Shown one piece after another: positions 1,251 to 13,632 of a stretch of 16,193 nt of DNA (position 1 is its first letter; every line of letters begins with the position of its first letter). Position numbers and translations under genes: made by a program. This stretch comes from Dimargaris cristalligena (lineage: Eukaryota > Kickxellomycota > Dimargaritomycetes > Dimargaritales > Dimargaritaceae): positions 1 through 16,193 of the forward strand of contig JANBQC010000385.1 of NCBI GenBank assembly GCA_027576995.1. The letters are read 5' to 3'. The notes beneath the pieces were generated by a model that was not told the origin of the DNA, searched no databases, and worked only from the letters and a program-made list of their open reading frames with translations.

Positions 1251-1251
1251 G

Positions 1252-1325
1252 CGATCGCAGCAGGACTCGAACCTGCAATCTCCTGATCCGTAGTCAGGTG
1301 CCTTATCCAATTTGGCCATGCGACC
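1252..1325 (-). tRNA. tRNA-Arg, anticodon ACG
   Basis: On the minus strand this folds as a complete cloverleaf of 73 bases plus a discriminator G. The 7-bp acceptor pairs GGTCGCA with TGCGATC (one G-T pair). The D arm is GCC/GGC. The anticodon arm pairs CCTGA with TCAGG around loop CTACGGA, giving anticodon ACG, read as ICG for arginine CGN codons. The T arm pairs GCAGG with CCTGC around loop TTCGAGT. The A box (TGGCCAAATTGG) and B box (GGTTCGAGTCC) both match eukaryotic Pol III consensus. There is no intron and no encoded CCA. TTTT follows two bases after the acceptor stem. These traits mark a nuclear eukaryotic tRNA gene. Confidence 0.96.
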
Positions 1326-2523: not shown

Positions 2524-2790
2524 TTACGAGCCGCCCTTCTTCTTGCCCTTCTTTTCACCAGCGGGAGGGCCTTCGGGTTTCTTGTCATTAGCTGGGGCCT
2601 TATCGTTCTCTTTGTTTTCCTTGTTGTTGTTGGCCTTAGCATTGCCGCCGCCGCCGACAGTGACGGGGATAAAGTGGTGTTCGTTGCTGGACAGGTGCTT
2701 GGAACCACCGGTGGCGGCCGGACTATAGGCAGAGACACTGCCGGGCACGGCGACGGTGAATTTACAAGGAGAATATCCCCAGCTGGCCAT
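2524..2790 (-). CDS. Small lysine-rich protein of unknown function
   Basis: An 88-residue protein I do not recognise. The codon choice is what supports it: third positions are mostly G or C (AAG, GGC, GCC, AAC), unlike the surrounding AT-rich DNA. The ATG lies in a good context (AACATGG) and the frame ends in TAA. Residues 1-49 look like a small folded part with polar and beta-prone sequence, one Cys (Cys9), a HEHH-like cluster near 37-39 (EHH) and a GGGG tract at 46-49. Residues 50-88 are low complexity in Lys, Asn, Glu, Gly and Pro, ending in a polybasic run (KKGKKKGGS), so probably disordered. There is no signal peptide or membrane segment. TATA-like words lie 160 and 280 bases upstream. 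It could be a complete small gene, or the last exon of a longer one if an upstream exon was missed. The antisense frame looks membrane-like only because AAG, AAC and GGC read as Leu, Val and Ala in reverse. Confidence 0.7.
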   Translation of the reverse strand: MASWGYSPCKFTVAVPGSVSAYSPAATGGSKHLSSNEHHFIPVTVGGGGNAKANNNKENKENDKAPANDKKPEGPPAGEKKGKKKGGS

Positions 2791-7230: not shown

Positions 7231-9216
7231 ATGGCCCTCACCATTCCCGAAGTCGCTGCCAATGCCCGTACTGCGGCCAATCAGCTCCAGAATGTGACGT
7301 CTACCCAAAAGTCCCAGGTCTTGGCCCACATTCGACGGGAGTTGGAGGCCCACAAGGAAGAAATTTTCGCCGCCAATGCCCAGGACCTGCAGTTGGCCCA
7401 AGAGGAAGTAGCCAAGGGCCGCCTGTCTGCCTCTCTCTTTAAACGCCTTGACATCAAGGGTGACAATGAGGAAAAGTTCAATACTCTTCTCCAGGGGGTC
7501 ACCGACGTTGATAACCTGCCCGATCCCATTGGTAAGTATACCTCGACGCAGCTTCGTTATTGCAATGCATGGGTGGAGTAGTGGTCGGCTGTTTGGGTGC
7601 CAGTAGGCGAATATAGGGGTACCGCAGTGGCCCTAGGTATCGACTTCATCAAGCCTGGGGGGCACGAAGTAGGCTTATTGGAAGTGGTACAAGTGACTCA
7701 TACCGATCCTTGGCTTATGATAGCACACCCTTTCCCCGTTTCCCAGTTTCCCACCACCTCCCGCCCTTTTATCCTAAAGTGGGCACGGTACCAGGGTTAA
7801 TCTAGGCGTCCATATTTATGGTCTTAGTACTTATTACCCATTCTCGGATAGCTTGTTCTAAGTGGGGTTATCTTCTAGCCTTCATTTCAGCAATCGAATA
7901 ACTGGGTGCTATGCATTGGCTAGCTGCCTACAGAATTTAAACCCGGAATCTAGGTGCAATAACCCGTTACTGGGAGCACTGTGTCGAATATTACATTCTA
8001 TTAGTTGAACCCGTTGTGTATATTTATTACTCAATTTATTCCATCACGAACCTGGGCTGCTAATACATTACAATATCCCATTTATCCCCTGTATTGTACC
8101 TTCTGTCTTTTAGGCCAGGTCACTCGGGCCACTGAGCTGGACCAAGGCCTAGACCTGTACCGGGTCACGGCTCCCGTAGGCGTTATTCTGGTTATCTTCG
8201 AAGCCCGTCCCGAGGTGGTCGTTAACATCAGCTGTTTATCCATAAAATCCAGCAATGCCGCCATTCTGAAGGGCGGTAAGGAGGCCTACCATACCCTCGC
8301 TGTGCTTACCCGGGTGATGCAGTCCGCCATTGAAGGTGTGGTCCAAGATATTCCTTTCCCCAAGGACGCCATCCAACTCGTGTCCACTCGGGAGCACATT
8401 GACGAGCTTCTGCAACAGGACCGCTATATTGATATGGTAATCCCCCGGGGATCCAATCAGTTGGTCCGTCACATCCAGAATAACACCCGGATTCCGGTCT
8501 TGGGCCACGCTGACGGTTTGTGCAGTATCTACCTTGATGACACGGCCGATGTGAACAAGGCCCCTGGCCTGGTGGTCGACTCCAAGACCAACTACCCCGC
8601 CGCCTGCAACTCCGCTGAAACCCTCCTGGTCCATCGCTCTCTACTGGGTTCGGACTTGCTGACAAAGACTATCAAGTCCCTTTTCGACCATGGCGTCTCA
8701 CTGCGCTGTGATCCACCCACTCTGCAATTCATTGAGAATAGCCCGGTATTGGGTTCCGCCTCTTACAAGAAGGATCAACAATACTCCGCCAGCACCGATG
8801 AGGATTACGATACCGAGTTCTTGGATCTGTGCATGGCCGTCAAGGTAGTCGATTCGGTCGAGGAGGCCATTACCCACATCAACACCCATGGTTCTAAGCA
8901 CACTGACTGCATCGTGACCGAAACCCCCGCCCACGCCGAGAAGTTTATGAACATGGTGGACGCCGCCGGGGTGTATTATAACGCCTCTACCCGATTTGCC
9001 GATGGGTTCCGCTACGGATTCGGGACTGAAATCGGTGTGAGTACCAACAAGACCCACGCTCGCGGTCCCGTGGGTCTCGAAGGTTTGACCATCTACAAGT
9101 ACCGCCTGTATGGCCAGGGTCATAAGGCCGGTGACTTCGGAGTTGGCGCCAACAAAAAGGCGTATTTGCACAACGATATCGGCGTCGATTCTGTGAAAAA
9201 CAAGTTTGTCCGTTAA
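7231..9216 (+). CDS. PRO2: Glutamate-5-semialdehyde dehydrogenase (gamma-glutamyl phosphate reductase)
   Basis: Catalyses the second step of proline synthesis: NADPH-dependent reduction of L-glutamate 5-phosphate to glutamate 5-semialdehyde, expected in the cytosol. Two exons, 7231-7531 and 8114-9216, encode 467 residues, close to the about 456 of yeast Pro2. The split codon (G|GC) rejoins the family motif DPIG-QVT at residues 98-104. Visible family blocks are FEARPEV (129-135), KSSNAAILKGGKEA (145-158), PRGSN (211-215), GHADG (231-235), the catalytic Cys265 in NYPAACNSAETLLVH, NASTRFADGFRYGFG (390-404) and ARGPVGLEGL (416-425). The start is the ATG in ACCATGG; a nearby upstream in-frame TTG is not needed. 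Codons are GC3-rich. An AATAAA lies 110 bases past the stop. It faces gene A tail to tail. Nothing suggests a defect. The monofunctional form fits a fungus; plants and animals fuse this domain to glutamate kinase (P5CS). Confidence 0.97.
7532..8113 (+). other. PRO2 intron (582 bp)
   Basis: The donor GTAAGT at 7532 is a perfect fungal 5' splice site. The acceptor is a pyrimidine tract ending in TTTTAG at 8113. A branch-point-like CTAAT lies at 8060-8064, about 50 bases before the acceptor. Removing it restores the family sequence across the junction (phase 1, within a Gly codon). The intron is long for a fungus and AT-richer than the exons. It contains stops in the exon 1 frame after 16 codons. 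A perfect TGACTCA (7694-7700) lies inside it. Confidence 0.93.
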
Positions 9217-9834: not shown

Positions 9835-10647
9835 CTAGGTTTTGACAGGTCCAACCTTATCAGCGCATTTCTTTTCCTCATTGAATGATAAGTTGCTCGA
9901 TGTCTCAAAGTTGACCGTCGATTGGGGTTTTTGCTCTTGGTCGGCTCTCGGCCTGGTCCTGTCCTGGCGGCGGGACTTCGAGTGGTCGTTTCCGATTTCA
10001 ATATTGGCGGAGATGAGACTATCAAGGAGTTTGTCGAGACGCTTCATTTCTTCCTTGATGGAAAAACTGCCCGCTGTTCCGAACCTGGCCTTCAATTTGA
10101 CTGTTTCGTCGTGATCCGCTCTGGGTTCGACCATGGCTCGACGACGAGACTGCGAGTGGTCGTTTCCAATTTCGATATTGGCGGCGATGACATTGTCAAG
10201 GAGTTTGTCGAGGCGCTTCTTGGTGTCCCTGGTGGAAAATCTACGGGACGTTGCCCCATTGGGTTCGAAAGTATTGCTACGGCGTAGCTTATCGAGTAGA
10301 TCGCCGACTTTGTCGAGGGTACCGCCTACACCCTCCAAAGTTTTGTCGAGGGTATCGCCCACACCATCCAGAGTTTTGCCGACGGTGTCGACCAAACCAT
10401 CGAGAAGGGCACGCTCGGTAACGCCACCATTGTCGGTGACCCTGAAAGTGGCGGGGTGGATCCCATCTTTGAACAGTATCAACTTGGCCCGTTTTTCTTT
10501 GGTCTTCGGTTCGTCCTTGCCTTTGGCAGCGGCGTAGAAGTTGGTCGACCAACGTTCGGCCCGTGGGATCAAGCCAGTTGGGGTGGAAAGGGCGTCGCAG
10601 GCAATGGCCAGAAGTGCCAGGGTCAGCGCAGTAACAGTGAGCTTCAT
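9835..10647 (-). CDS. Secreted Kex2-type repeat precursor (gene A)
   Basis: A 270-residue predicted secreted precursor, paralogous to gene B. Residues 1-20 are a signal peptide (MK, then a hydrophobic run ending near CDAL). The pro-region shares a spaced pattern with gene B: PRA near 30, ST-F near 34-37, K-K-KRA near 50-54 and FK-G near 59-62. Residues 85-117 are three 11-residue repeats (T-KTL-GVG-type). Residues 146-203 and 204-261 are two 58-residue units. Each starts with the shared segment LDKLLD, then I-ANIEIGNDHS, then S-RR, and ends in PRAD..(F)..EE-K. A third unit breaks off after ADKV at the stop. Dibasic sites suited to Kex2 occur at 52-53, 122-123, 135-136, 144-145, 168-170, 202-203 and 226-227. 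One Cys lies in the signal peptide and one at 261. The frame is intact. It probably releases peptides in the late Golgi; the target is unknown. Codons are GC3-rich, supporting this strand. Confidence 0.85.
   Translation of the reverse strand: MKLTVTALTLALLAIACDALSTPTGLIPRAERWSTNFYAAAKGKDEPKTKEKRAKLILFKDGIHPATFRVTDNGGVTERALLDGLVDTVGKTLDGVGDTLDKTLEGVGGTLDKVGDLLDKLRRSNTFEPNGATSRRFSTRDTKKRLDKLLDNVIAANIEIGNDHSQSRRRAMVEPRADHDETVKLKARFGTAGSFSIKEEMKRLDKLLDSLISANIEIGNDHSKSRRQDRTRPRADQEQKPQSTVNFETSSNLSFNEEKKCADKVGPVKT
9838..10212 (-). repeat. Two 58-residue (174-bp) repeat units plus truncated third
   Basis: Unit 1 is 10039-10212 and unit 2 is 9865-10038. A remnant of unit 3 (aligned ADKV with LDKL) covers 9838-9864. 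The first 24 residues of each unit (10141-10212 and 9967-10038) are strongly conserved and match the gene B repeat. The remaining 34 residues are far more diverged, retaining PRAD, a central Phe, and EE(M/K)K. Confidence 0.8.
10297..10395 (-). repeat. Three 11-residue (33-bp) repeats in gene A
   Basis: Residues 85-95, 96-106 and 107-117 read LVDTVGKTLDG, VGDTLDKTLEG and VGGTLDKVGDL. An 11-residue period with hydrophobics at fixed places suggests an extended amphipathic helix, as in LEA-like or apolipoprotein-like repeats. The tract is followed by LDKLRR and a dibasic site, so it could be released as a separate peptide. Gene B has no counterpart. Confidence 0.75.
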
Positions 10648-12750: not shown

Positions 12751-13632
12751 TCACGGGTTATGATCATTAGCGACTTCAACATTGGCAGCGATGCCGTTGT
12801 CGAGGAGCTTATCCAGACGGCGGGACTGAGAATGGTCGTTGGCCACCTCGGCATTGACCGCAATCACATTGTCTAGGAGCTTGTCGAAACGACGGGATTG
12901 GGAATGGTCGTTGGCCACCTCAACGTTGGCAGCAATCACATTGTCCAAGAGCTTGGTAAAGCGGCGGGACTGGGAATGGTCGTTGGCCACCTCAGCATTG
13001 ACCGCAATCACATTGTCTAGGAGCTTGTCGAAACGACGGGATTGGGAATGGTCGTTGGCCACCTCGACATTGACGGCGACGCCGTTATCCAGGAGCTTAT
13101 CCAAGCGACGAGACTGGGAGTGGTCATTGGCAATTTCCACGTTGGCCGCAATGACATTGTCCAACAGCTTGTCGAAACGACGGGATTGGGAATGGTCGTT
13201 GGCAATCTCTACATTGGCGGCAATGACATTGTCCAAAAGCTTGTCCAGGCGACGCGATTGGGAGTGGTCATTGGCAATTTCCACATTGGCGGCAATGACG
13301 TTATCCAGCAGCTTGTCGAATCGACGGGACTGGGAATGGTCGTTGGCAACCTCGACGTTGGCCGCAATGACGTTATCTAACAGCTTGTCGAAACGACGGG
13401 CGCGGGAGGGGTGGTTCTTCCCCAGGGCGACGGCACGGGGACCATGCTTGAACGTCGCCATATCAGCCCGCTTATCCTTCGTCTTGGAATCAATCTTTCC
13501 CTCGGTAGTAGAACTAAATTTGAAGTCGGTGGACAGGTTGTCGGCACGCGGGGTCAGATCATTTTCGACCGGAAGGGCACCGGAGGTAAGAGCAAGCATG
13601 GTCAGGGCCAGAACAGTGACAGCGAACTTCAT
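12751..13632 (-). CDS. Secreted Kex2-type repeat peptide precursor (gene B)
   Basis: A 293-residue predicted secreted polypeptide precursor. Residues 1-19 are a signal peptide: MKF, then a hydrophobic core ending near TSGA. A pro-region of about 60 residues has a KDKR site (52-55) and ends in RARR (77-80). From residue 81 come eight exact-length 24-residue units and a ninth of 21 residues ending at the stop. Unit consensus: FDKLLDN (1-7), VIAAN (8-12), VEVANDHSQS (13-22), RR (23-24). Units contain no Cys, Tyr, Trp, Met or Asn-glycosylation sequon. After Kex2 cut and carboxypeptidase trimming, each would give about 22 residues with net charge near -3 and an amphipathic first half. Known analogues in plan are alpha-factor precursors and Ustilago Rep1; the sequence itself I do not recognise. 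The role (surface coat, signal or pheromone) is open. Intact frame, GC3-rich codons and match to gene A fix the strand. The long open antisense frame is a shadow of the 72-bp period. Confidence 0.9.
   Translation of the reverse strand: MKFAVTVLALTMLALTSGALPVENDLTPRADNLSTDFKFSSTTEGKIDSKTKDKRADMATFKHGPRAVALGKNHPSRARRFDKLLDNVIAANVEVANDHSQSRRFDKLLDNVIAANVEIANDHSQSRRLDKLLDNVIAANVEIANDHSQSRRFDKLLDNVIAANVEIANDHSQSRRLDKLLDNGVAVNVEVANDHSQSRRFDKLLDNVIAVNAEVANDHSQSRRFTKLLDNVIAANVEVANDHSQSRRFDKLLDNVIAVNAEVANDHSQSRRLDKLLDNGIAANVEVANDHNP
12754..13392 (-). repeat. 72-bp tandem coding repeat, 8 full copies plus one partial
   Basis: The units start at residue 81 and run without spacers. Position 1 is Phe (units 1, 2, 4, 6, 7, 8) or Leu (3, 5, 9). 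Units 5 and 9 have Gly at position 8. Units 6 and 8 have Val11 and Ala13, and are 69 of 72 identical in DNA. Unit 7 has Thr in place of Asp2. Unit 9 ends NDHNP, losing SQSRR. The alternating 6/8 and 5/7 likeness points to duplication of a 144-bp dimer or to gene conversion. Confidence 0.95.

What the first reader, a model, noticed from the sequence alone, without database searches (positions are those of the whole stretch)
12751..13632. Undescribed tandem peptide precursor: nine 24-residue units ending in Arg-Arg
A signal peptide, a pro-region ending RARR, and spacer-free units ending in RR are the hallmarks of a fungal Kex2-processed repeat protein. The unit is acidic, lacks Cys, Tyr, Trp and Met, and has an amphipathic first half. 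It therefore does not fit defensin-like, dikaritin-like (Tyr-containing core) or cationic antimicrobial peptides. The repeats match each other over their full length, but I recognise no known pheromone or repellent in them.
Basis: partly seen in the sequence, partly recalled or inferred. Interest (0 to 1): 0.8.

Follow-up and report, generated by a model that had tools for sequence, protein, structure and literature searches.

The report
Fungal secreted repeat-peptide precursor family
A fungus that parasitises other fungi carries three related genes, each of which looks like a carrier of short secreted peptides cut out at Arg-Arg or Lys-Arg; the kind of precursor is known, but this peptide family had no match outside this species in our protein searches, and its job is unknown.

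Summary
Window 12751-13632 (-) is a 293-aa ORF with a signal-like N-terminus, a pro-region ending RARR and nine in-frame units: eight of 24 aa ending RR and a ninth of 21 aa ending NDHNP. The source is Dimargaris cristalligena, an obligate mycoparasite (the GPR gene in the window is 100% identical over exon 2). It is one of three paralogues, here A, B and C. B (window 9835-10647, -) has two units separated by a spacer; C (another contig) has 20 units, mostly ending KR. Consensus of 22 in-register units: FxKLLDNGIxANxNxLNDHSKAKR. Units in A differ mostly at third codon positions (52/41/286; dN/dS about 0.05). KR or RR precedes 28 of 31 units. The genome has one kexin and S10 carboxypeptidases at four loci. 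Searches with A and C found no protein from elsewhere. This is weak evidence of absence, because A and C did not retrieve even themselves. The best reading is a Kex2-processed repeat protein (KEP) family releasing linear peptides of about 22 residues. KEPs are a known class. The role outside the cell is inferred, not shown.

The parts
12751..13632 (-). Gene A: 293-aa precursor with signal-like N-terminus, pro-region and nine repeat units
13576..13632 (-). Gene A signal-like N-terminus (about residues 1-19; cleavage point not determined), hydropathy peak 2.46 over residues 4-15; next highest after residue 25 is 1.22
   Evidence: Kyte-Doolittle hydropathy; SignalP not available
13393..13575 (-). 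Gene A pro-region (residues 20-80), ends RARR, contains one more KR at 54-55; start aligns with the pro-region of gene B
12754..13392 (-). Gene A nine tandem units (eight of 24 aa ending RR, last of 21 aa)
9835..10647 (-). Gene B: 270-aa paralogue with shared pre-pro region and two separate units, each between KR and RR
10141..10212 (-). Gene B unit 1 (residues 146-169)
9967..10038 (-). Gene B unit 2 (residues 204-227)
7231..9216 (+). Neighbour, not part of the system: two-exon gamma-glutamyl phosphate reductase (467 aa spliced) used to name the organism

Best explanation
Genes A, B and C are precursors of one family of secreted linear peptides. Step 1 (inferred from the N-terminus): the protein enters the secretory pathway. 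Step 2 (inferred from dibasic placement and a kexin gene): a kexin cuts after each RR or KR. Step 3 (inferred): an S10 carboxypeptidase trims the basic pair, leaving 22-residue peptides such as FDKLLDN..NDHSQS from A and FEKLLDN..NDHSKA from C. Step 4 (least certain, about 0.45, a strict pheromone included): the peptides, low in mean hydrophobicity and acidic (A) to near-neutral (most of C), act outside the hypha as signals or as effectors at the contact with the mucoralean host, rather than as lytic agents. The conserved KLLDN and NDHS parts would be what is recognised. A and B share an ancestor (homologous pre-pro region); the three genes now hold 9, 2 and 20 units.
For: Register and dibasics: KR or RR immediately precedes 9 of 9 units in A, 2 of 2 in B and 17 of 20 in C. 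RR in A against KR in C keeps a dibasic while the residues before it change from QS to mostly KA. In B the two units are 20/24 identical, while the sequences after them match at 10 of 28 aligned positions (counted from the alignment). Constraint: ratio of mean dN to mean dS 0.047 in A (28 pairs of 8 units, 5 failed or saturated) and 0.165 in C (190 pairs of 20 units, 62 failed or saturated); codon-position skew. Over 31 units: L4 31, D6 30, N7 29, N17 29, D18 27, H19 26, S20 28. One P-domain match in the genome, in an ORF with S8 and P domains scoring 530 bits to kexin 2id4. S10 carboxypeptidases: five matches at four loci. A and B pre-pro regions align far above shuffles, z=20.4 with and 12.8 without the signal.
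Against: No transcript, peptide or secretion data. Three of the 20 C units lack a full dibasic in front (PR, NR, HH), so at least the C15-C16 junction would not be cut. C scores above cut-off for DM14, CsoSCA_C and IPPT in Pfam; I discount these because no single stretch passes on its own. One antisense frame of A is also rich in synonymous changes (64%). Units vary at the middle positions, so one receptor for all is not obvious. STE2 and STE3 searches found nothing, without a control that rang. AlphaFold gave no usable model.
Confidence: 0.8

Rival explanations
1. Shares steps 1-3, differs in role: the released peptides are a surface coat that self-assembles on the hypha or spore wall, as Ustilago Rep1 repellents do, and works by bulk rather than by a receptor.
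For: 31 units over three genes and variation of middle residues suit a bulk material. In 5 of 8 units tested (A1, A5, B1, B2, C6) residues 8-18 have their highest moment at 180 degrees, a strand-like alternation, though this was not tested against shuffles. Residues 1-18 are amphipathic as a helix in C6 and C17 (p=0.005; the other six of eight p=0.032-0.082). PMC6784888 (passages) reports hydrophobins outside Dikarya only in two cases.
Against: 22-24 residues against 34-55 for Rep1 (PMC4617103 passages). Mean hydrophobicity of residues 1-18 is -0.01 to 0.16 (Eisenberg) in the eight units tested. Nearly fixed KLLDN and NDHS suggest more than bulk.
Confidence: 0.25
2. The protein is secreted but stays uncut, as a repeat wall or matrix protein; the dibasic pairs are structural.
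For: Two of 19 internal C junctions have lost the dibasic while the frame stays open. The AlphaFold model puts about one helix per unit, at very low confidence.
Against: Dibasics flank both separate units of B. RR in A is replaced by KR in C at the same place. AlphaFold gave mean pLDDT 43 from one sequence, which decides nothing either way.
Confidence: 0.12
3. Shares steps 1-3, differs in role: a peptide pheromone in the strict sense, sensed by a GPCR of the same species (this 0.15 is part of the 0.45 given to signal or effector).
For: Unit length is within the 9-24 aa class of alpha-type pheromones (PMC6339444 section 6). That paper states that the pheromones of early-diverging fungi other than Mucoromycotina and Blastocladiomycota are largely unknown (section 18).
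Against: No STE13-type XA or XP start in 31 units: residue 2 is D, E, T or N. Units are not identical. No STE2 or STE3 match, uncontrolled.
Confidence: 0.15
4. Intracellular repeat protein or chance open frame.
For: DM14 score above cut-off for C (61.5 against 24.6 bits); one antisense frame of A is rich in synonymous changes (64%).
Against: The DM14 score has no passing stretch, and its best piece covers 16 of 56 profile positions. All three proteins start with a hydrophobic segment. The sense-frame synonymous share is higher (77% in A), and in C it is 55% against 30% for that antisense frame.
Confidence: 0.03

Closest known systems
Kex2-processed repeat proteins (KEPs) of fungi: surveys PMC6339444 (2019) and PMC7329392 (2020)
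   Same: Signal-like N-terminus, at least three repeats of at least 8 aa between KR/RR sites (A and C), no second strongly hydrophobic segment, kexin in the same genome
   Different: No sequence relative found. Gene B has two units and falls below both surveys' minimum of three. The surveys' supplementary tables could not be read here, so a listing of these genes there is not excluded.
Ustilago maydis Rsp1 (as described in PMC4617103, passages read)
   Same: 260 aa, eleven hydrophilic imperfect repeats of 18 or 21 aa separated by putative Kex2 motifs: the nearest layout that I read of
   Different: Its sequence is not held here, so homology was not tested; different phylum, and three paralogues here
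Ustilago maydis Rep1 repellents (PMC4617103, passages read)
   Same: Kex2-cut repeat precursor of secreted peptides
   Different: Repeats of 34-55 aa, amphipathic, fibril-forming; here 22-24 aa with low mean hydrophobicity
Ascomycete alpha-type pheromone precursors (PMC6339444, sections 6 and 9)
   Same: Size class and repeat layout
   Different: No STE13 signature, non-identical units, three genes

Membership tests
KEP | Signal peptide | tested here: met
   12-residue hydropathy peaks of 2.46-2.51 within residues 3-16 of A, B and C; next highest after residue 25 is 1.03-1.24. SignalP itself not run.
KEP | At least 3 repeats of at least 8 aa between Kex2 sites | tested here: met
   A: 9 units, C: 20 units; B has 2 and does not meet it
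KEP | Kexin in the same genome | tested here: met
   One P-domain match, C159, kexin by sequence
KEP | Peptides released in the cell | not testable with these tools
   Needs peptidomics
Ascomycete alpha-type pheromone | STE13 XA/XP dipeptides after the Kex2 site | tested here: not met
   0 of 31 units; residue 2 is D 12, E 11, T 5, N 3
Ascomycete alpha-type pheromone | STE2 receptor in genome | tested here: inconclusive
   No match to PF02116, but none of the 14 control genomes rang
Dikaritin / ustiloxin-type RiPP | Tyr in the core | tested here: not met
   No Tyr in the 9 A or 2 B units; of 20 C units only C13 (position 1) and C20 (two, near its end) carry Tyr
Dikaritin / ustiloxin-type RiPP | UstYa (DUF3328) gene | tested here: inconclusive
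   No PF11807 match in the genome, but none of the 14 control genomes rang
Rep1-type repellent | Amphipathic units of 34-55 aa | tested here: not met
   28 of 31 units are 24 or 25 aa; the others are A9 (21), C20 (26) and C16 (38, with an insert)
Rep1-type repellent | Amyloid-like surface fibrils | not testable with these tools
   Needs biophysics
U. maydis Rsp1 | Sequence homology | not tested
   Rsp1 sequence not fetched; only its description was read
DM14 (CC2D1A/B) | A DM14 stretch that passes on its own | tested here: not met
   Whole protein C 61.5 bits but 0 stretches, best piece 16 of 56 positions

The most novel reading that the evidence does not exclude
The three genes encode a peptide language of D. 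cristalligena or its order: a conserved 22-residue secreted peptide, in sub-types (A-type acidic; C-type with Lys or Leu at position 10 in 17 of 20 units), that a biotrophic mycoparasite uses for self-recognition or for manipulating its mucoralean host. That would be a peptide signal in an early-diverging lineage for which, according to PMC6339444, pheromone chemistry is largely unknown.
Probability: 0.25. Interest if true: 0.7.

Novelty: new member of a known kind. Interest (0 to 1): 0.42.

Why it matters
KEPs occur in most fungi surveyed (1345 of 1461 strains, PMC7329392 abstract), yet few of their peptides have been studied (PMC9769878 abstract), and PMC6339444 had too few mycoparasites to compare (section 24). 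Here one constrained peptide sits in three precursor layouts in a mycoparasite, which fixes the mature unit more firmly than one array could and gives exact masses to look for. Two of the three precursors did not turn up in the protein set searched, so surveys that start from annotated proteins may miss such genes.

Tried and rejected
Homologues: A matched only P0001, which is identical to B; C matched nothing. The two searches scored 7993 and 7999 candidates, those sharing most words. A and C did not retrieve themselves, so they seem to be missing from that set at comparable length. The control with exon 2 of the GPR gene (7999 scored, best 120 listed) shows that the set does hold proteins of Dispira simplex, Dimargaris xerosporica and Tieghemiomyces parasiticus (79, 77 and 75% identity). 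Unannotated precursors would be missed there too, so I do not claim absence in those species. Their genomes are not held here.

More family members in this genome: protein searches with A, C and B found only the three genes. A KLLDN codon pattern gave 59 matches: 27 in the three genes and 32 elsewhere, against 41 for the reversed control pattern, so the scattered ones are at chance level as a group; I did not look at them one by one.

Structure: the single-sequence AlphaFold model of A has mean pLDDT 43 and pTM 0.26, so no fold search was made. The profile of 22 units matched no PDB chain at E up to 10.

Pfam: A had 20 matches at E up to 1, all below cut-off. C had 11 at E up to 0.1, three of them above cut-off (DM14, CsoSCA_C, IPPT), rejected because none has a passing stretch. 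A resemblance of KLLDNG..VNA to part of an ankyrin repeat is recalled from memory; no ankyrin family is in either list.

Lytic peptide: judged unlikely because the core charge (His as 0) is -3 to -2 in A and B and -3 to +1 in C, with low mean hydrophobicity.

B spacers: only spacer against tail was above shuffles (z=8.8). Spacer and tail against the A pro-region gave z=2.3 and 1.9, and against the B pro-region z=-0.3 each, so a common origin of spacer and pro-region is not shown.

Rows dropped: dN/dS left out A9 (21 aa) and failed or saturated pairs (A 5/28, C 62/190, A-C 62/160, A-B 11/16, B-C 26/40), and for C it included four units not in register. The codon-position count dropped A9 and C13, C15, C16, C20. 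Pairs are not independent, and no test of significance was made on dN/dS. Helix moments were computed for eight of 31 units, without correction for several tests. One search was a scan of 21 bases and says nothing.

Full report
What is there. The minus-strand ORF 12751-13632 encodes 293 aa. Its repeat has period 72 bp, 8.6 copies and no indels. After a hydrophobic N-terminus and a pro-region ending RARR come nine units starting at residues 81 to 273. Eight are 24 aa and end RR; the ninth stops after 21 aa.

Whose genome. The gene next to B (7231-9216, +, one intron; spliced length 467 aa) is gamma-glutamyl phosphate reductase. Its second exon is 100% identical to a protein named Dimargaris cristalligena, then 79, 77 and 75% to Dispira simplex, Dimargaris xerosporica and Tieghemiomyces parasiticus. 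Taxonomy: Kickxellomycota, Dimargaritales. PMC6784888 (passages read) describes the species as an obligate mycoparasite grown with Cokeromyces recurvatus and sequenced from single cells; it grew on supplemented medium without host but did not complete its life cycle.

Three genes, one peptide. Searching the genome with A gave two more loci. B lies in the same window, 2.1 kb away on the same strand (9835-10647, 270 aa). It shares the pre-pro region with A (shuffle z=20.4, or 12.8 without the signal) but holds only two units, each preceded by KR and followed by RR, with 34 residues between them. C lies on contig 140 (positions 35456-37036, 526 aa) and has 20 units from residue 29 on. Over all 31 units L4 is invariant and K3, L5, D6, N7, N17, D18, H19 and S20 are nearly so (26-30 of 31), while positions 8-16 vary. 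In C, position 10 is Lys in 8 and Leu in 9 of 20 units, which suggests two sub-types.

Constraint. Among the eight full units of A, pairwise differences fall 52, 41 and 286 on codon positions 1, 2 and 3, and in 16 in-register units of C 611, 464 and 1441. Mean dN and dS are 0.057 and 1.2 in A, and 0.34 and 2.1 in C (failed pairs and other limits are under Tried and rejected). High synonymous divergence with little protein change argues that the A units are not fresh DNA copies but are held alike by selection on the peptide (inference). One antisense frame of A also has a high synonymous share (64% against 77%); in C it falls to 30% against 55%.

Processing. KR or RR stands directly before 28 of 31 units; the exceptions are PR before C1, NR before C8 and HH before C16. 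The genome has one P-domain match at E up to 0.01. Its ORF has Peptidase_S8 and P domains above cut-off and aligns to kexin 2id4 (yeast Kex2, recalled) over residues 27-502 with 530 bits. S10 carboxypeptidases, the class of Kex1 (recalled), occur at four loci. No cutting was observed; this is inference from parts.

Relatives. No protein outside this genome matched A or C. This is weaker than it sounds. B is in the protein set (P0001, 100% identical), but A and C did not retrieve even themselves, so gene prediction probably missed or altered them, and it may have missed relatives too. The neighbour-gene control shows that related proteomes are present. The only claim is that no annotated relative was found.

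Comparison. The layout meets the KEP definition for A and C; B, with two units, falls below the minimum of three used by both surveys (PMC6339444 section 24; PMC7329392 section 13). PMC7329392 reports 185 KEPs in 16 Zoopagomycota strains, and 2560 stand-alone KEPs of 7878 overall (passages, abstract and section 9), so an orphan KEP in this lineage is expected, not surprising. The nearest layout that I read of is U. maydis Rsp1, with eleven hydrophilic repeats of 18 or 21 aa (PMC4617103 passages). The unit does not meet the tested marks of alpha-type pheromones (STE13 start), dikaritins (Tyr core) or Rep1 repellents (34-55 aa). The STE2, STE3 and UstYa searches were negative, but no control rang. 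Paper searches: Dimargaris with KEX2, 0 papers; Dimargaritales with effector, 1; Zoopagomycota with pheromone and Kex2, 3; Dimargaris cristalligena, 9; Kex2-processed repeat proteins, 14. No title or abstract start in these listings describes this peptide. Of the listed papers I read sections or passages of PMC6339444, PMC7329392, PMC6784888 and PMC10386755 and the abstract of PMC9769878; the others I saw only in the listing. Subscription papers and supplementary tables were not searched.

How it most likely works. Secretion, cutting by kexin, trimming, and release of linear peptides of about 22 residues with nearly fixed KLLDN and NDHS parts. I put 0.8 on this. For the role outside the cell I favour a signal or host-contact effector (about 0.45, strict pheromone 0.15 included) over a wall coat (0.25), because the peptides have low mean hydrophobicity, are not strongly cationic, and are conserved towards both ends. 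That choice is inference only. In Coprinopsis, knockout of kep genes gave no detectable phenotype (PMC9769878 abstract).

Verdict. The finding is real and correctly read: an orphan family within a known class, strengthened by two paralogues. Moderate interest.

Noticed in passing
window 10309-10401 (-), gene B residues about 80-123: Gene B also holds a 33-bp (11-residue) amphipathic-looking repeat ending at RR, between its pro-region and its first unit. With the nearest upstream KR at residues 52-53, a Kex2 fragment there would be about 68 residues.
   Followed up: partly
window 9835-9966 (-), gene B residues 228-270: The tail of B resembles its spacer (z=8.8) and ends with KK and a short sequence where a third unit might be expected.
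   Followed up: partly
L008 4456-6036 (-): The C15-C16 junction has lost its dibasic, and C16 carries an insert with its own RR before the KR; such units may release a longer or different peptide.
   Followed up: no
window 1251-1325 (-): tRNA-Arg (ACG) gene.
   Followed up: no
window 2524-2790 (-): 88-aa ORF with a Lys/Asn/Pro-rich tail, possibly a short gene.
   Followed up: no
protein collection: A and C did not turn up in the protein set although B and the neighbouring GPR are in it, which suggests that such repeat precursors can be lost in gene prediction.
   Followed up: partly
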